From Devriesea agamarum (GTDB lineage: Bacteria > Actinomycetota > Actinomycetes > Actinomycetales > Dermabacteraceae), in the NCBI RefSeq assembly GCF_900070355.1, contig NZ_LN849456.1, positions 1,240,001 to 1,304,000 of the forward strand: DNA of 64,000 nucleotides. The letters run 5' to 3'. Positions 4,085 through 55,317 of this stretch are shown piece by piece. A program made the position numbers and the translations under genes. Every line of letters begins with the position of its first letter. The first letter of the stretch is position 1. Below the pieces are notes generated by a model, which ran no database searches, was not told where the DNA came from, and worked only from the letters and a program-made list of their open reading frames with translations.

Positions 4085-6016
4085 TTACGCACCCACCGGC
4101 TGAGGTCGCAGCCACCGGATAATGGCCCAGAAAACCAGGCCGAGAACCGGTGCGGCTACGATCAGGCCGATACCGGCCTGCTGCTGATCAATTAAGGCGT
4201 CCGCACGCCAGACCCGCCCCGTCGCTCCAAAAAATGATGCCTGAATTAGCACATCCCGCATCACCAAAGAGCCGCCCCACACAGCAAGAATAAGCGTAAG
4301 AAGGACCGACGCGAGGGCAGGAGCAGCCCGCGGATGAGAACGCGAGGCACAGCGCACCGCCCAGGCTCCGCCAATCCCCAAAGACAGCGTTAACAATGCC
4401 ATCGCCATATGGCCGGTATGGTCGATCAGCGCCCACCGCAGAAGCGGTGAGAAAAACAGTGCAGCAAGGATCACAGCCCCAGCTCCCGAACCAGCCGTAA
4501 GCCACCAACCATTCCGGCGAGAGCCCCATGAGCACGAAGCCACCACACCGCTCACAAGCGGACCGACCACCACCAGCAACAGCACATGTTCGGTCACAAA
4601 CGCCGAAAAAAGCACCCGCCCGTACACGCCGATTGGCCCCAGGAGCACCACCGACAGCACAATCAATCCGGTGAGAAATGCCAGGGACGAGTGACGATGA
4701 GGATGCCTCGTGCCGGGTGCAGACAGGCTGAGAGGATGCTGACGCCACCACCACAGCAATCCGAGAGACGCAATCAGGACCAGGGCAAACAGATCCAAAC
4801 GCCACGTGAGAAGAACCTGCGGCCAGGTGGGCGCCGGAGGCAGACTAAGCCCTGTGACCAGCTCAAAAGGTGGCATTGCTGCGGCGCGAGCCGGAGGCGG
4901 ACCGGCGGGTGGCGGAGCAATCCTCCCCATCAACGCGCCGAGCCCGGTCGCAATCACCATCACAGCAATTTCCGCAACAGCCAGGCGGGGCAGAATTGCC
5001 GTGCCGTCGCTGAGCACTAAGCGATGCCGCTGGAGCATTCCAGCCCCAGCCAGAATCAGCACCACCGCGATTTTCACCGCAGCAAAGCGCCCCCAGGCAC
5101 CGTCCAGCATTGAGGACAGCCCCGAGACCCCCTGGGTTTGCACCAAAATCATCAGCACACCCGAAACAGCAATGGCAACCCAGGCGACACCGGCGAGGCG
5201 CGAATAGGCACGTACAAGAGTGCGTGTCTGCTGAACCCTCAGTCTGATCGTGGGACGGGTGTGAAGGTCAAGGATCTGGATGAGCCCTCCCATCCAGACA
5301 ACCATGGCCAGAACGTGCACGAGAATCGCTGTGCCTGCCGTCTCGTGATCCTCAGCCGTGCTGGGATGACCAGTGCGCGCTAACCAGACGATTCCCAAAA
5401 GTGACAGAGCGACTCCGGCATAACCGCTCCACCGCAGCCGCGCCACCAGCACCATTGTGGTAAGTGCGGCAATCACCGTCACAGCCAGCAGATCCCGGCC
5501 AAGCTCACTGGTCACAAAGAGACCGAGATCAGAACCGAAACGCGAAGACCACAGCGGCTGCTCGGACGCCACCGAATACGACAGGATCAAGCCAATCAAT
5601 GAGGCCACGGTCCAGATCCCCGCTGCCACCGAAGTGTTGGTCATGAGGTGGCCACGCACCTGGTCGCTATCTGGCCCGGATTCGCCTCGCGCGTCAAAAA
5701 AGGTGAGTAGACCGCATCCGGACGCTGTCAACGCCATAGCAGTCAGGTAGATCATCGCCACCAGAGTGGATGGAAGCACCTGGGTAAAAGATGTACCCGC
5801 GCCTTGTCCGCTGAAAACTCCGGTGGTGATCATAGCCGCGCCGGCGGTGACCGCGAGACCCAAACTTGCTGCCGCCACCAGCATCCAGCGCATCCCTCGC
5901 ACGGAGCCGGCACCAATCGGGTTAGTGCCCGGGTCGAGACTAGGGCTCGGCCTAAGGCTAGAGCTAGGGCTAGAGCTAGAGCTAGAGCTAGACGGTTCCA
6001 TGCCCTGCCCGGACAT
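4085..6016 (-). CDS. CopD/CtaG-type fusion membrane protein (copper resistance D + cytochrome c oxidase assembly)
   Basis: Polytopic membrane protein of about 643 aa. After a Ser/Pro-rich cytosolic N-terminus come membrane segments, then a CopD-like block around residues 270-365 (RLAGVAWVAIAVSGVLMI; WGRFAAVKIAVVLILAGAG), and a caa3_CtaG block from about residue 400 to the end (TEHVLLLVVVGPLVSG). Known: CopD domains are linked to copper uptake across the membrane and CtaG to copper delivery during cytochrome oxidase assembly; the CopD-CtaG fusion occurs in many actinobacteria. The frame is open to a GTG at 6067, inside the crcB gene; the ATG at 6016, 12 nt beyond the crcB stop at 6028, is preferred. 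ATG 6001 is also possible. The N-terminal tail is encoded by a hexanucleotide repeat (see 5952-5993). Confidence 0.85.
   Translation of the reverse strand: MSGQGMEPSSSSSSSSPSSSLRPSPSLDPGTNPIGAGSVRGMRWMLVAAASLGLAVTAGAAMITTGVFSGQGAGTSFTQVLPSTLVAMIYLTAMALTASGCGLLTFFDARGESGPDSDQVRGHLMTNTSVAAGIWTVASLIGLILSYSVASEQPLWSSRFGSDLGLFVTSELGRDLLAVTVIAALTTMVLVARLRWSGYAGVALSLLGIVWLARTGHPSTAEDHETAGTAILVHVLAMVVWMGGLIQILDLHTRPTIRLRVQQTRTLVRAYSRLAGVAWVAIAVSGVLMILVQTQGVSGLSSMLDGAWGRFAAVKIAVVLILAGAGMLQRHRLVLSDGTAILPRLAVAEIAVMVIATGLGALMGRIAPPPAGPPPARAAAMPPFELVTGLSLPPAPTWPQVLLTWRLDLFALVLIASLGLLWWWRQHPLSLSAPGTRHPHRHSSLAFLTGLIVLSVVLLGPIGVYGRVLFSAFVTEHVLLLVVVGPLVSGVVASCSWGSRRNGWWLTAGSGAGAVILAALFFSPLLRWALIDHTGHMAMALLTLSLGIGGAWAVRCASRSHPRAAPALASVLLTLILAVWGGSLVMRDVLIQASFFGATGRVWRADALIDQQQAGIGLIVAAPVLGLVFWAIIRWLRPQPVGA
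5952..5993. repeat. Hexanucleotide tandem repeat (CTAGAG-type) coding for poly-Ser
   Basis: Seven 6-bp units: CTAAGG, CTAGAG, CTAGGG, CTAGAG, CTAGAG, CTAGAG, CTAGAC. On the minus strand they read TCT AGC repeatedly and encode the Ser-rich N-terminus of the CopD-CtaG protein. The 6-bp period keeps the frame whatever the copy number. Confidence 0.85.
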
Positions 6017-6027
6017 GCCTGTACCGT

Positions 6028-6423
6028 TCACCGGGTCCAAAGCACCGGTAGGAAAAGTCCGAGCCACATTGCGGCCATGATCGAACCCAAAGTGATCATC
6101 AAATATCCGACGGCTTCCACCGCAGCACCGCGACGCAGAAGCATCACAATTTCAAAGGCAAACGTGCTCATCGTGGTTAAAGCTCCGCAAAAACCGGTGC
6201 CCACGATCAGCAACAGCCAGGACGGTGAGGTGTCGGCGCCGTTGACCAAGATCCGGGTGAAAAATCCGAGCAGGAACGCACCGGCCACATTTACAACAAA
6301 TGTCGCCCATGGGATCTGAGGTTTGTCCGGGTGGCGCTGCCACCGCACCCCCAGTTCAGAGACGGAGTACCGCACGAGAGCTCCGAGAGCACCACCAAAT
6401 GCCACACACAGCACCGCGATCAT
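6028..6423 (-). CDS. crcB: Fluoride-specific ion channel subunit CrcB/Fluc (1)
   Basis: 131-aa, four-helix membrane protein that exports fluoride. Seen: GGALGALVRYSVS at the N-terminus, an Asn in the second helix (FVVNVAGAFLLGF), and the signature GTGFCGALTTMSTFAFE, which in Fluc proteins holds the central Na+ site and the Phe box. Its ATG overlaps the stop of the second crcB by 4 bp, so the two are co-translated. Known: paired adjacent crcB genes in Gram-positives usually encode a heterodimeric antiparallel channel. No fluoride riboswitch was recognised upstream of the pair. Confidence 0.93.
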   Translation of the reverse strand: MIAVLCVAFGGALGALVRYSVSELGVRWQRHPDKPQIPWATFVVNVAGAFLLGFFTRILVNGADTSPSWLLLIVGTGFCGALTTMSTFAFEIVMLLRRGAAVEAVGYLMITLGSIMAAMWLGLFLPVLWTR

Positions 6424-50480: not shown

Positions 50481-53015
50481 TCAGCGCTCAACCAACGCCT
50501 CTAACAGCACAACCGCCCCCTGTTTAGAGAGCGGTTCGTTACCATTGCCGCACTTCGGAGACACGATGCAGGCGGGACACCCGGCACGGCACGGGCACGT
50601 ACGCACCAGGTCGAGCGTGGCATCCAGCCATGCCCTCGCCCGGGCAAAACCCTGATCGGCAAACCCAGCCCCACCTGGCGCGCCGTCATGCACAAAAACC
50701 GTGGCATGACCTGTGTCTTCATGCAGCGCCGTTGATACCCCTCCGATATCCCAGCGATCACAGGTTGCAAGCAGGGGTAACAGTGAGATGGCCGCATGTT
50801 CGGCGGCATGCAACGCACCCGGTAAGTCCGCCGGAGCAATACCCGTGCGTTGGATCAGGTCCGGTGGGATCACCCACCACACGGCCCGGGTTGTCAACGA
50901 TCGAGGCGGCAAATCCAGAGGATATTCGGCTAAAACAGCCCGCGTAAAAATATCCCGCACCTGATAGCTCGTGACCTGATCGGTGACATCAACCATCCCG
51001 CGACATAAGCGCACACCACTGTCCCACCGCGTATCCTCGTCCGTTGACCGGATGCGCAGTGAGGAAATCGATTGGGCATGCGTTGAGATCAGCGGGTCTT
51101 CTCGACGCACAAAGGCCACCGCGTCCTCAACATCAAGCCGATCAACAACAAACGTCTGCCCCTGATGCAAATAAACAGCCCCGTCATGAACCTGCTGGTG
51201 AGCGGCCGCCGCATCCACGGTTCCCAGTAGCGCTCCAGAAGATGTCTCGACGATGCGAACCGGCTCACCCCCGCTTCCCCGCAAGTCGGCGAGATCGTGA
51301 GCTGAGGATGGATGCGTCCAGTACCACCCGGTCGTCCGCCGTCGAAGAGCTCCCCGGCGCACGAGAACAGCCAGCAGATCAGCAGCGCTTGGCCCGAAAA
51401 TCTCCAGATCCTCATCGCGCAGCGGATGCTCCGCGGCAGCCGCACACAAATGCGGTGACAGTACAAACGGGTTGTGCGGATCGAACACAGTCGCCTCAAC
51501 CTCAGCCCCGAACACGGTGTCCGGATGATTGACCACATAGATGTCCAAAGGGTCCTCGCGGGCGATGAAAATCGCCAAGGCGGGCTGCTGGTGCGAGCGT
51601 CCTGTCCGTCCGATCTGCTGCCACAGTGATGCTCTAGTTCCGGGCCATCCGGTGACCAGCACCGCGTCCAAACCGGAGACATCAATACCAAGTTCCAACG
51701 CGTTCGTCGACGCCAGACCGAGCAGCTGTCCACTCCGAAGAGCTTTTTCCAGGTCACGGCGTTCCTGTGCGAGGAAACCTCCGCGATAGGCCGCGATTCG
51801 CCGGGCCCGATCAGCGATCTCTGGCCGATAGGTGTCCTCAGCTTGCTGGTCGAGCAGTCGGCGTGCGGAACGCGCCACCAGTTCGACGCCGCGCCGTGAT
51901 CGCACGAAAGCCAACGTCCTGACTCCATGGCCCGCTAAGTCAGCGAGGAGTGCGGAGGCCTCAATAGTCGCTGATCGCCTCAGGGGTTCCACATCGGGGC
52001 CGGCGTGAGAGCCCTCATCAGAATCGACGCCACAACCAGCGTCGGGGTCCACACCACAACCAGAATCGACACCACAACCAGTGTCAGGATCGGTATCACA
52101 GCCGTCGTCAAGACCGGTATCAGAACCGTCATCAGGATTAATGTCAGGGCAGATACCCTGGCCAACTCGGCCTCGTGCTGCCCGAGACATCTCGGGACCG
52201 CTATCACTTCCCGGTTCCCACAGGGCGATGGTCACAGGAGCTCTGGGGGAACCATCGTCCTGCACTGCATGAACGGGTTGCCCCACAAGTCTCGACGCCG
52301 ACAGATCGGGATGCGCTGTGGTTGCTGAGGCCAGAATCATCGTGGGCTGAGCACCATATAACCCTGCCAAACGACGCAGCCGCCGCATCACCATCGCGAC
52401 GTGCGCACCAAACACGCCCCTATATGCGTGGCACTCGTCGATCACAACGTATTTCAGTGCTCTAAGGAAGGCCGTCCACTGCTCGTGACCGGGGAGCATG
52501 CCGTAGTGCAGCATGTCGGGGTTACTCAACACCAGATTTGCATGGCGTCGTATCCAGCGGCGTTCCTCGGATGGGGTGTCACCATCAAAGACAGCGGCCC
52601 TCACCTCACGCAAATCTGCCTCACGGCACAACGCCTCTAGGCCATGCAGCTGGTCGGAAGCGAGTGCCTTCGTAGGGGCAAGGTAGAGAGCCGTTGCTCG
52701 GTTAGCGGATGCGTCGTGCGTGCGCGCGGTGATAGCGCTGAGAACTGGCAGTTGGTAGGCGAGCGATTTACCCGATGCTGTAGAGGTCGCGATCACCACA
52801 TGGCGACCCTCCTGCGCGCACCGTATCGCTTCGACCTGATGCGACCATAGGCGGTCAATTCCCCGTTGAGCCAGCGCCTCAACCAGCCGAGGGTCGATGC
52901 CAGGTGGGATATCGGCGTAACGGGCAGGTCGGGAGGCAAGGCGTTCCACGTGTCGCAGACACCCCAATCGACTGGCGGGTGCACTCAGCATTGCAAGCAG
53001 CCGGTCAGCATCCAT
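50481..53015 (-). CDS. DEAD/DEAH helicase with C-terminal DUF1998 zinc-binding domain (MrfA-like)
   Basis: 844 aa. Seen: motif I ATSTASGKSLAYQLP, LAPTKALASDQ (Ia), Walker B VIDECHAYRGVFG, SAT motif LASATTA, motif VI QQIGRTGRSHQQ, and a C-terminal Cys cluster CPCRAGCPACIVSPKC (about 814-829) of DUF1998. Known: MrfA of Bacillus, with this architecture, repairs mitomycin damage; actinobacterial homologues sit near topA, as here. A low-complexity insert of about 55 residues, Asp/Gly/Cys-rich (CGVDSGCGVDPDAGCGVD), lies about residues 283-340 between the RecA domains. It is divergent from the methyltransferase across a G-rich repeat. Confidence 0.9.
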   Translation of the reverse strand: MDADRLLAMLSAPASRLGCLRHVERLASRPARYADIPPGIDPRLVEALAQRGIDRLWSHQVEAIRCAQEGRHVVIATSTASGKSLAYQLPVLSAITARTHDASANRATALYLAPTKALASDQLHGLEALCREADLREVRAAVFDGDTPSEERRWIRRHANLVLSNPDMLHYGMLPGHEQWTAFLRALKYVVIDECHAYRGVFGAHVAMVMRRLRRLAGLYGAQPTMILASATTAHPDLSASRLVGQPVHAVQDDGSPRAPVTIALWEPGSDSGPEMSRAARGRVGQGICPDINPDDGSDTGLDDGCDTDPDTGCGVDSGCGVDPDAGCGVDSDEGSHAGPDVEPLRRSATIEASALLADLAGHGVRTLAFVRSRRGVELVARSARRLLDQQAEDTYRPEIADRARRIAAYRGGFLAQERRDLEKALRSGQLLGLASTNALELGIDVSGLDAVLVTGWPGTRASLWQQIGRTGRSHQQPALAIFIAREDPLDIYVVNHPDTVFGAEVEATVFDPHNPFVLSPHLCAAAAEHPLRDEDLEIFGPSAADLLAVLVRRGALRRRTTGWYWTHPSSAHDLADLRGSGGEPVRIVETSSGALLGTVDAAAAHQQVHDGAVYLHQGQTFVVDRLDVEDAVAFVRREDPLISTHAQSISSLRIRSTDEDTRWDSGVRLCRGMVDVTDQVTSYQVRDIFTRAVLAEYPLDLPPRSLTTRAVWWVIPPDLIQRTGIAPADLPGALHAAEHAAISLLPLLATCDRWDIGGVSTALHEDTGHATVFVHDGAPGGAGFADQGFARARAWLDATLDLVRTCPCRAGCPACIVSPKCGNGNEPLSKQGAVVLLEALVER
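52012..52150. repeat. Imperfect repeat encoding the Asp/Gly/Cys insert of the helicase
   Basis: CGACGCCACAACCAG, CCACACCACAACCAG and CGACACCACAACCAG follow one another, then GTATCA/GTCATCA units. On the minus strand they encode repeating GCGVD and DDGxDT runs. The unit length is a multiple of 3, so the frame is kept. Confidence 0.75.
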
Positions 53016-53313
53016 CGAAGCACCCTCCCTCCTTGTCCCTACATTCTCTCTGTCCCTACATTTCGGCGACTTTCTGCGCTGTGAGAACGCGGCAGAGCCC
53101 TAAGAGCCCAGAGCCCAGAGCCCAGAGCCCAGAGCCCAGAGCCCAGAGCCCAGAGCCCAGAAGAACCGTCCCACAGGTCGCGCCGCACCTACGCATCGCA
53201 AAGCACCCCGCGCCTAGCCATCGCCGAGATCCCCGACGCCTATCCGCCCGAATCATCCGATCTTGGCCGGTCGGTTTTCGCGCTAGGTCAGCGACCCAGG
53301 CACAATCGTAGGC
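53016..53313. other. 298-bp divergent intergenic region (helicase / methyltransferase)
   Basis: Holds a duplicated GTCCCTACATT near 53034-53064, then the 7-bp repeat array, then about 150 bp without recognised features before the methyltransferase ATG. Both divergent promoters must lie here. Confidence 0.5.
53103..53158. repeat. 7-bp microsatellite AGAGCCC x 8 (GGGCTCT on the minus strand)
   Basis: Eight perfect copies of AGAGCCC from 53103 to 53158, with two more bases of a ninth. On the minus strand this is GGGCTCT x 8, a series of GGG runs with 4-nt loops, a canonical G-quadruplex pattern. It lies 88 bp from the helicase start and 156 bp from the methyltransferase start. Confidence 0.95.
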
Positions 53314-55317
53314 ATGATCTCGCCTCCCCCACCCCAGATACCCGCCGGGCCACAGGGCCAACGGCTGTTGCGCGCCCTGCGCGAGGATCTGGAGTCCGCG
53401 GGCTACGGCGTCAGCGCCGTGAGAGAGACACTTGGACCGGTGGCCCACGATGCGCTGTCGCGGGAAAACCCCGTCCCGGCGCGTCGGCTCTTGGCGGCCC
53501 ACTCTCGAGCTGGGCAGAGCTTTCCCGCGCTCGAGCTACTGAATCTTTTTACCCTGGGCGGTGTAATGGGCGGCGAGCGCATCTCTCATCTCCTGCCCCG
53601 CCTGGGACTGTGCGGCGCCATGGATCTCGGCTTGATCACACCGGTTTCCGATGATGACCTCCGCGAGGACGCGACACACCCCGTATGTCCAGACGCCGAT
53701 CTTCAAGGCTCAGATTCCTGCACCTGCGATGATGCGCGCCGTGTTCCCGACACCAACTCTGTGGGCGAGACTTCTTTACACGCCGCACCTTCCCGCACGA
53801 CCTCCTCACACGTCATCCCTTCCCGCGTCGCCTTTTTCCGCGCGACAGTTGATCTACGCCCGTATGAAGCGGAAGACGAACTGGGGCAGATCCTCTGGTG
53901 GATCACCTCGGATCTGTCTGAGCTTGCGACCGGCCGTGAACTCGCACCTGATCATGTCTTGGGAGTCGGCGGCGCCTCCACCACACTGGCAAGGATCACG
54001 CCCCGACCCCAGGTCAAGGCCACCTGGGATCTTGGCTGCGGATGCGGCATCCAGGCTTTGCATGCGGCACGCCATAGCGAACGGGTCGTGGCGACAGATC
54101 TATCACCCCGGGCCATAGCCTTTGCACGGTTTAATGCCGAACTGAACGGCGTGGCCTTGGATCTGCGGGTTGGCTCACTGTTTGAGCCGGTGGACGGCGA
54201 ACGTTTCGATCTGATCGTCTCCAATCCTCCGTTCGTGATTACGCCTCGCGTTGCGAGCACCAACCCCGACCAGTCAGCCAGCACCAGCGAGACGCCTGCC
54301 CTAGATTATGCGGACCACGAACGCACCTTGACCTACCGGGACGGTGGCCGCAGCGGTGACCGACTGCTCGCTGAGGTCACATCAGGGCTCGGTGATCATC
54401 TGAACCCCGGTGGAATAGCGGTCATGCTCGGGAACTGGGAAATACCTTCCGACACCTCATGGGACACCCATCCGAGGGCCTGGGCTGCGGCTTCTGGTCT
54501 GAATACCTGGGTGATTCAGCGAGATGTCGAGGATCCAGCTCGGTACGCCGAAACGTGGACCCGAGACGGCGGGATCCGGCCTGGCGATCCTCGCTACGCA
54601 CCCATGATTTCGCGGTGGCTAGATGATTTCGACACTCGACACGTGCACGGCGTGGGTTTTGGCTATTTGCTGTTTTCTCGGCCGGAGGATAGCTCGCCGC
54701 CTACCGTGCGCACCGAGGATATTCGGCGCCCTCTGCCCTCCCCGTTGGGACCGCGCTTGCTGGCGATCTTGCGTCGTGAAGCCAAGCTTTTGCGGCTGAC
54801 TAACCAGGAGCTGTGCACTGTTCACCTTGTGCATGCCACGGATGTGATTGAGCGACGCCATCTCACTCCGGGCAGCGCGGATCCGCTGCTGATTGAGTTG
54901 GTTCAAGGTGATGGGCTGGCCGCTACCTACGCGGTGCCGTGGACTCTTGCCGCTGTGTTTGGTGCGTTGGACGGCGCGCTCACCCTGGGTCAGGTGGTTG
55001 CCGCGGTGGCTGCTTTGACGGAAACGGATCATGGCGAGCTATTAGAGGATCTTCTGCCGCGGGTGCGCGAGCTCATCCGCGATGGTCTTCTGCTCATGCC
55101 CGACTCCTTACCGCTGGCACCAGGAGACATCTCGCAGTCGTCCGCGGAGGCCTCGCCATCTCCGACACAGGTCTCGCCATCGTTAGCAGACGCGTCATAC
55201 CCCGTTACAGACACCCCGCAGTCACCCACAGCAGACACTTCGCCAACACCCACAGCAGACGCCTCGCTATCACCCGCAGATGAGCAGTCAGCTTCGAGCC
55301 ATAGGACGCATTTGTGA
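53314..55317 (+). CDS. Large class I SAM-dependent methyltransferase (DUF7059-type)
   Basis: 667 aa. After a helical N-terminal domain (about 1-90) and an Asp/Ser/Thr-rich linker (about 110-190) comes the Rossmann methyltransferase core: DLGCGCGIQALHAARH (about 238-253), VVATDLSPRAIAFARFNAE, and the N-methyltransferase tetrapeptide NPPF (VSNPPFVITPR, about 303). The rest (about 420-590) is a C-terminal domain typical of this actinobacterial family; residues 600-667 are Ser/Pro/Thr-rich repeats (SPTQVSPSLADAS). NPPF enzymes modify N atoms in proteins, rRNA or DNA bases; the target is unknown. GTG of the PAP2 gene overlaps its stop. Confidence 0.85.
   Translation: MISPPPPQIPAGPQGQRLLRALREDLESAGYGVSAVRETLGPVAHDALSRENPVPARRLLAAHSRAGQSFPALELLNLFTLGGVMGGERISHLLPRLGLCGAMDLGLITPVSDDDLREDATHPVCPDADLQGSDSCTCDDARRVPDTNSVGETSLHAAPSRTTSSHVIPSRVAFFRATVDLRPYEAEDELGQILWWITSDLSELATGRELAPDHVLGVGGASTTLARITPRPQVKATWDLGCGCGIQALHAARHSERVVATDLSPRAIAFARFNAELNGVALDLRVGSLFEPVDGERFDLIVSNPPFVITPRVASTNPDQSASTSETPALDYADHERTLTYRDGGRSGDRLLAEVTSGLGDHLNPGGIAVMLGNWEIPSDTSWDTHPRAWAAASGLNTWVIQRDVEDPARYAETWTRDGGIRPGDPRYAPMISRWLDDFDTRHVHGVGFGYLLFSRPEDSSPPTVRTEDIRRPLPSPLGPRLLAILRREAKLLRLTNQELCTVHLVHATDVIERRHLTPGSADPLLIELVQGDGLAATYAVPWTLAAVFGALDGALTLGQVVAAVAALTETDHGELLEDLLPRVRELIRDGLLLMPDSLPLAPGDISQSSAEASPSPTQVSPSLADASYPVTDTPQSPTADTSPTPTADASLSPADEQSASSHRTHL

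What the first reader, a model, noticed from the sequence alone, without database searches (positions are those of the whole stretch)
53103..53158. Eight perfect GGGCTCT repeats in a divergent promoter: possible G-quadruplex or phase-variable spacer
Seen: AGAGCCC x 8. On the minus strand the GGG runs with 4-nt loops meet the G-quadruplex pattern twice. A 7-bp unit changes promoter spacing when copy number changes, a known way for phase variation. The flanking genes are a DUF1998 repair helicase and a methyltransferase.
Basis: partly seen in the sequence, partly recalled or inferred. Interest (0 to 1): 0.5.

Follow-up and report, generated by a model that had tools for sequence, protein, structure and literature searches.

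The report
Seven-base microsatellite between two divergent genes
Eight perfect copies of a seven-letter DNA repeat lie in a stretched gap between a DNA-repair-type helicase gene and a methyltransferase gene; it is most likely an ordinary slippage-made repeat, and it is not inside the promoter element that relatives conserve.

Summary
In detail: AGAGCCC x8, perfect, at 53103-53158 (period unbroken to 53161), far beyond chance, and the only array of this unit in the 2.96-Mb genome. It lies between a divergent MrfA/Hrq1-like helicase gene and a DUF7059 methyltransferase gene. In 37 relatives the spacer is 48-183 bp (median 103); here it is 298 bp, so the array sits in extra, lineage-specific DNA. 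A 16-bp element, CACAATSGTAGSCATG, occurs once per genome in 38 of 47 family genomes. It ends on the methyltransferase ATG, 139 bp from the array, with a -10-like hexamer on each strand. The array is therefore no -35/-10 spacer for the methyltransferase. If the helicase starts there too (inferred), the array lies in its 5' leader. The G-quadruplex pattern is present, but the unit is quasi-palindromic and RNA folding prefers a hairpin. The same heptamer was found in 93 stretches from many phyla, and in near-identical transposon copies it numbers 3 to 23, so the sequence does vary in length in nature. Copy number could not be compared between strains of this species. Best reading: a heptanucleotide microsatellite, probably near neutral; a new member of a known kind.

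The parts
53103..53161 (-). Heptamer array; reads (GGGCTCT)n on the minus strand, AGAGCCC x8 on the plus strand at 53103-53158
53094..53102 (.). Offset further unit AGAGCCC followed by TA
   Evidence: (sequence)
53016..53313 (.). Divergent spacer, 298 bp; 48-183 bp (median 103) between implied starts in 37 relatives
53301..53316 (.). Conserved element CACAATCGTAGGCATG: plus-strand -10-like CACAAT (53301-53306) and minus-strand TANNNT, TACGAT (53305-53310); its ATG is the methyltransferase start. Reading as bidirectional core promoter is inferred
   Evidence: 38 of 47 family genomes, once each
50481..53015 (-). MrfA/Hrq1-like DEAH helicase gene (TIGR03817)
53023..53034 (-). Shine-Dalgarno-like AAGGAGGGAGGG, 7 nt before the helicase ATG
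   Evidence: sequence, position
53314..55317 (+). DUF7059/MTS methyltransferase gene

Best explanation
A heptanucleotide microsatellite, made and kept uniform by slipped-strand mispairing, in extra lineage-specific DNA between a conserved core element and the helicase start. Shown: the perfect array, its uniqueness in the genome, the longer spacer, the conserved element 139 bp away, the presence of the same heptamer at other loci in other bacteria, and its different copy numbers in near-identical transposon copies. Inferred: that it slips in this species too, that self-pairing of the G-rich strand helps slippage, and that it is near neutral or at most fine-tunes the helicase.
For: Perfect units and one offset edge unit. 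No array of this unit at this locus in the relatives: family pattern search gives only own, G016 and G035, the latter two at other loci. Spacer longer than in any of 37 relatives. Same heptamer in 93 stretches of the genome collection. In 24 transposon copies, 3-23 heptamers and 1-10 nine-mers, 19 compositions. G-rich strand folds on itself as DNA, -9.1 kcal/mol, 0 of 200 shuffles as good; C-rich strand does not stand out (-1.2; 40 of 200 shuffles as good).
Against: Copy number was not compared between strains of this species, so variability here is not shown. The array is alone in its genome, so this genome is not generally prone to heptamers. Self-pairing strength is not exceptional: 22nd percentile among 192 heptamer classes of equal GC, 9th among 1170; 12 other heptamers found in passing show no trend. 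The published G-rich heptamers are rare between divergent genes (7-9%, PMC4692102), so the place is unusual. The 14 plasmid copies were picked from the 60 listed hits partly for their differing lengths, so 19 of 24 overstates diversity.
Confidence: 0.7

Rival explanations
1. Leader rheostat, working like hmwA of Haemophilus influenzae: the conserved element drives both genes, the helicase mRNA starts near 53298, and (GGGCUCU)8 forms a self-contained hairpin in a leader of about 283 nt; copy number changes leader length and structure and so helicase output.
For: The only minus-strand TANNNT in 53016-53340 is in the conserved element, and 0 of 37 relatives have another in their spacer. Modelled leader: 91% of the array's pairing is within the array. 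[quoted passage not shown]
Against: No start site is mapped. The 37 relatives were chosen for having the element, and GC-rich spacers hold few TANNNT anyway. The Shine-Dalgarno and ATG stay partly open in the model, so a small effect is expected. hmwA is a surface adhesin; a helicase is not a usual contingency gene.
Confidence: 0.15
2. G-quadruplex switch: the G-rich strand forms a quadruplex in DNA or RNA that affects transcription or replication nearby.
For: Pattern met twice. Other GGG heptamers form G4 in vitro (PMC4692102, abstract and Discussion).
Against: With quadruplexes allowed the RNA optimum stays the hairpin at -35.0 kcal/mol, whereas GGGAAUC and GGGGAUU change. G4 patterns are not rare in this genome, about 65 per Mb.
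Confidence: 0.07
3. Phase-variable promoter spacer as first proposed: copy number sets the distance between promoter parts.
For: A 7-bp unit upstream of two divergent starts.
Against: Conserved element 139 bp from the array on the methyltransferase side; no promoter-like site by the sigma-70 scan and no minus-strand TANNNT between array and helicase ATG.
Confidence: 0.04
4. Clustered binding sites for a protein that recognises the heptamer.
For: Regular direct repeats upstream of a gene.
Against: No such array at this locus in relatives; the unit lies beside differing genes where neighbours were identified.
Confidence: 0.03

Closest known systems
G-rich heptamer repeats GGGAATC / GGGGA(C/T)T of Xanthomonas and Nostoc (Rehm et al. 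2015, PMC4692102; abstract, passages and Discussion read)
   Same: Heptamer with a GGG run, at least four units, non-coding, pattern fits G4, copy number not conserved
   Different: Unit is GGGCTCT, quasi-palindromic, hairpin preferred in the RNA model; one array in the genome instead of many (183-186 in Xanthomonas); lies between divergent genes, their rare position (7-9%)
ATCTTTC / TGAAAGA heptamers upstream of hmw1A and hmw2A, Haemophilus influenzae (PMC8262952, PMC2651432; passages read)
   Same: Heptamer array about 100 bp upstream of a start codon; if the leader reading holds, also within the 5' UTR
   Different: No variation or expression effect shown here; gene is a helicase and not an adhesin; unit is GC-rich and folds on itself
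(GGGCTCT)n(GGGCTCTCT)m in the HD-GYP/DUF3391 passenger gene of Tn4662a-type Tn3-family transposons
   Same: Exactly the same heptamer
   Different: Inside a coding sequence, joined to a 9-bp array, on mobile DNA of Gammaproteobacteria
Bidirectional bacterial promoters with overlapping -10 elements (PMC10268837, PMC12825309; passages read)
   Same: Conserved element with a -10-like hexamer on each strand between divergent genes; implied start sites about 16 bp apart, inside the 7-25 bp used there as definition
   Different: Inferred from sequence only; overlap of the two hexamers is not the standard 18-bp arrangement

Membership tests
Bacterial heptanucleotide simple sequence repeats | Perfect tandem 7-bp units, beyond chance | tested here: met
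Bacterial heptanucleotide simple sequence repeats | Copy number differs between strains | not testable with these tools
   No second genome of the species at hand; the same unit varies in other bacteria
G4-type GGG heptamers (Rehm et al.) | At least four GGG runs with short loops | tested here: met
G4-type GGG heptamers (Rehm et al.) | Many arrays dispersed in the host genome | tested here: not met
   One array of the unit in the genome; no other period-7 array in 464 kb; GGGAATC x3 in 0 of 47 family genomes
G4-type GGG heptamers (Rehm et al.) | Quadruplex is the preferred fold | tested here: inconclusive
   RNA model prefers hairpin; DNA quadruplex energy not available, hairpin only
hmwA-type upstream heptamer contingency locus | Repeat lies between a promoter and the start codon of the gene | tested here: inconclusive
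   Only by consensus: sole minus-strand TANNNT is beyond the array; no start site mapped
hmwA-type upstream heptamer contingency locus | Copy number changes expression | not testable with these tools
   Needs reporter or RNA data
Promoter-spacer phase variation | Repeat lies between the promoter hexamers | tested here: not met
   Methyltransferase side: conserved element 139 bp away. Helicase side: no promoter-like site beside the array by consensus

The most novel reading that the evidence does not exclude
The array is a hypermutable RNA-hairpin rheostat in the 5' leader of a DNA-repair helicase, driven from a conserved bidirectional promoter, so that slippage tunes repair capacity from cell to cell: a contingency locus acting on DNA repair instead of a surface structure.
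Probability: 0.07. Interest if true: 0.55.

Novelty: new member of a known kind. Interest (0 to 1): 0.22.

Why it matters
It shows that a striking repeat between divergent genes need not be a promoter spacer: comparison with relatives puts the conserved element elsewhere. One heptamer, GGGCTCT, recurs in unrelated bacteria and takes many lengths in near-identical DNA, which makes it a handy natural sequence for studying slippage. The conserved divergent element is a clear prediction for start-site mapping in this family.

Tried and rejected
G4 as the preferred RNA fold: not borne out by the G4-aware run. Array as coding sequence: the frames across it are open because the repeat has no stop in any frame, and neither flanking gene needs them (inference). 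Known RNA family: no Rfam match at gathering score in the window. Spread by viruses: 1 stretch in viral contigs. Self-pairing as a general cause of heptamer expansion: no trend in 12 other heptamers. The unit as a mark of this family: 3 of 47 family genomes against 1 of 47 for the reversed control, 4 of 297 against 2 of 297 in the order sample, 1 of 396 against 0 of 396 in the phylum sample; too few to claim. Orientation rule: among 93 arrays, picked gene ends within 100 bp were 15 (3', G-rich sense), 11 (3', antisense), 3 (5', sense), 4 (5', antisense). That picker is unreliable: many sides stay open because the repeat has no stops, and in L136 it took a wrong frame. I draw no rule from it.

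Papers: 1 paper; 2,701; 15 listed; GGGCTCT with tandem repeat: 164; 20 listed, none of these titles on bacterial repeats; 17; 10 listed; 0; 4; 4; 254; 12 listed; 64; 8 listed. I found no paper on GGGCTCT arrays or on the repeat in the Tn4662a gene in these searches; the lists were capped and the library holds open-licence papers only.

Rows dropped or picked: one search used 17 helicase loci; L012 gave no methyltransferase hit. One search was given 26 loci; L112 (contig end) and L148 (right flank not found) were dropped, 24 kept. The printout garbles the heptamer count in three rows (L063, L181, L190); I read 9, which fits the printed lengths. In L153 and L182 the ungapped right-flank identity to L063 is 24.5% and 32.8%; gapped alignments are 99.0% and 99.6%, so I take it for an indel. 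The 10 genome copies were found by a pattern of four perfect units; the 14 plasmid copies are 14 of 60 listed hits of 955 records, picked by me partly for differing length. One search used 37 relatives chosen by the element, so its conservation there is by construction; the open count is 38 of 47. In one search the frames given for L118 and L136 were not the genes next to the arrays.

Full report
What is there. AGAGCCC is repeated eight times without a mismatch at 53103-53158, and the period runs on to 53161. One more unit at 53094-53100 is set off by TA. The array is far beyond chance, the only array of its unit in the 2.96-Mb genome, and the only perfect period-7 array of at least 18 bp in 464 kb sampled. 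Five perfect period-6 arrays are in the same sample, so slippage repeats as such are not foreign to this genome.

Setting. The minus-strand gene (50481-53015) is a DEAH helicase with MrfA zinc-binding and HRQ1 winged-helix domains, TIGR03817; the plus-strand gene (53314-55317) is a DUF7059/MTS methyltransferase. That the species is a Devriesea is my guess from genome size and lone genus, not tested.

Relatives. The divergent pair was seen in 16 of 17 loci read. In 37 relatives the distance between implied starts is 48-183 bp, median 103; here 298 bp. The array makes up about a third of the excess over the median. CACAATSGTAGSCATG occurs once per genome in 38 of 47 family genomes, with 0 control matches; in the window it is 53301-53316 and its ATG is the methyltransferase start. 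CACAAT ends 7 bp before that ATG, so the mRNA is probably leaderless (inferred; leaderless mRNAs and TANNNT -10 motifs are common in M. tuberculosis, PMC3898074, passages). On the other strand the element reads TACGAT, a TANNNT. It is the only one on that strand in 53016-53340, and 0 of 37 relatives have another in the spacer; those 37 were chosen for the element, and GC-rich spacers hold few TANNNT. I infer a bidirectional core promoter: implied starts are about 16 bp apart, within the 7-25 bp used as definition and near the common 18 bp in PMC10268837 and PMC12825309 (passages). The automatic sigma-70 scan found no site, and no RNA data exist here.

The array is 139 bp from the element, so its length does not set a hexamer distance for the methyltransferase. 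If the helicase starts at the element, the array is in its leader, 87 bp before the ATG, G-rich in the RNA. In the modelled leader 91% of the array's pairing is within the array, and the Shine-Dalgarno and ATG stay partly open (start site assumed at 53298), so I expect a small effect.

Structure. GGGCTC can pair with itself through four G-C and two G-T (G-U) pairs. As RNA the array gives -35.0 kcal/mol and the optimum does not change when quadruplexes are allowed, whereas (GGGAAUC)8 and (GGGGAUU)8 do change. As DNA the G-rich strand gives -9.1 kcal/mol (z -6.05, 0 of 200 shuffles as good), but the optimum is only 4% of the ensemble and the centroid is open; the C-rich strand gives -1.2. DNA quadruplex energy was not computed, so hairpin against G4 in DNA is open. 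Among heptamers the self-pairing is good but not exceptional.

The same unit elsewhere. Three units: 3 of 47 family genomes, 4 of 297 of the order sample, 1 of 396 of the phylum sample, against 1, 2 and 0 for the reversed unit. Four units: 93 stretches in genome contigs, from many phyla; the neighbouring genes were identified for only a few. In B. equifaecis the array starts 2 bp after the stop of a Thioredoxin_4 gene. In B. tyrofermentans four contig ends carry 55 bp of it; in two of them it follows a stop codon by 26 bp and 2 bp, G-rich strand sense, after ORFs of 331 and 547 aa. In three Acetobacter species it appears to lie in one and the same spacer with 6.4, 6.9 and 4.9 units (Pfam checked for one of the three).

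Variation of the same unit. Twelve of the 93 stretches, all those from Pseudomonas and Stutzerimonas, share DNA at 98.7-100% over 1.2 kb or more. In plasmids 955 records match some of a 1.8-kb query, 75 of them over at least 80% of it in one place. On pDK1 the stretch lies beside a Tn3-family transposase; PMC7157771 (passages) names Tn4662a under the same accession. In 24 copies the array is (GGGCTCT)3-23 (GGGCTCTCT)1-10 in 19 compositions; 22 of the 24, the reference L063 included, have flanks at least 99.5% identical to L063 over 400 bp on both sides. The sample was picked partly for length, so 19 of 24 is not a rate. It shows that this heptamer takes many lengths in nearly identical DNA; it does not show that it does so in the window's species.

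Verdict. A heptanucleotide microsatellite in a stretched divergent spacer, probably variable and probably without a strong role. The leader-rheostat reading stays possible and can be tested. It may work like hmwA; it is not shown to be of that kind.

Noticed in passing
L177 (NC_014124.1, pDK1) 4952-6256; copies L178-L190; L063, L092, L095, L102, L106, L109, L112, L123, L135, L137, L148, L153: The HD-GYP/DUF3391 passenger gene beside a Tn3-family transposase holds (GGGCTCT)n(GGGCTCTCT)m. Of 14 plasmid copies annotated, 4 show one HD-GYP CDS across the array, 9 show separate DUF3391 and HD-GYP CDSs, and 1 shows only the HD-GYP side. It looks like a possible phase-variable c-di-GMP phosphodiesterase carried on mobile DNA; length changes may also be plain decay.
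   Followed up: partly
L077:1-55, L103:1-55, L118:6290-6344, L136:1-55 (B. tyrofermentans FME25 contig ends): Four contigs end in 55 bp of the heptamer, so longer arrays of this unit break short-read assemblies and are probably undercounted.
   Followed up: no
L174:16143-16196, L175:3617-3655, L176:9241-9285, window 5969-5992: Perfect hexamer arrays of 9, 6.5, 7.5 and 4 units in the same genome.
   Followed up: no
window 53301-53316: CACAATSGTAGSCATG, once per genome in 38 of 47 family genomes: a candidate bidirectional core promoter for helicase and methyltransferase.
   Followed up: partly
G000:C1:2005233-2005433: DnaA C-terminal domain lies here; if the origin is beside it, the fork crosses the window towards lower coordinates and the G-rich strand is the lagging-strand template (inference).
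   Followed up: no
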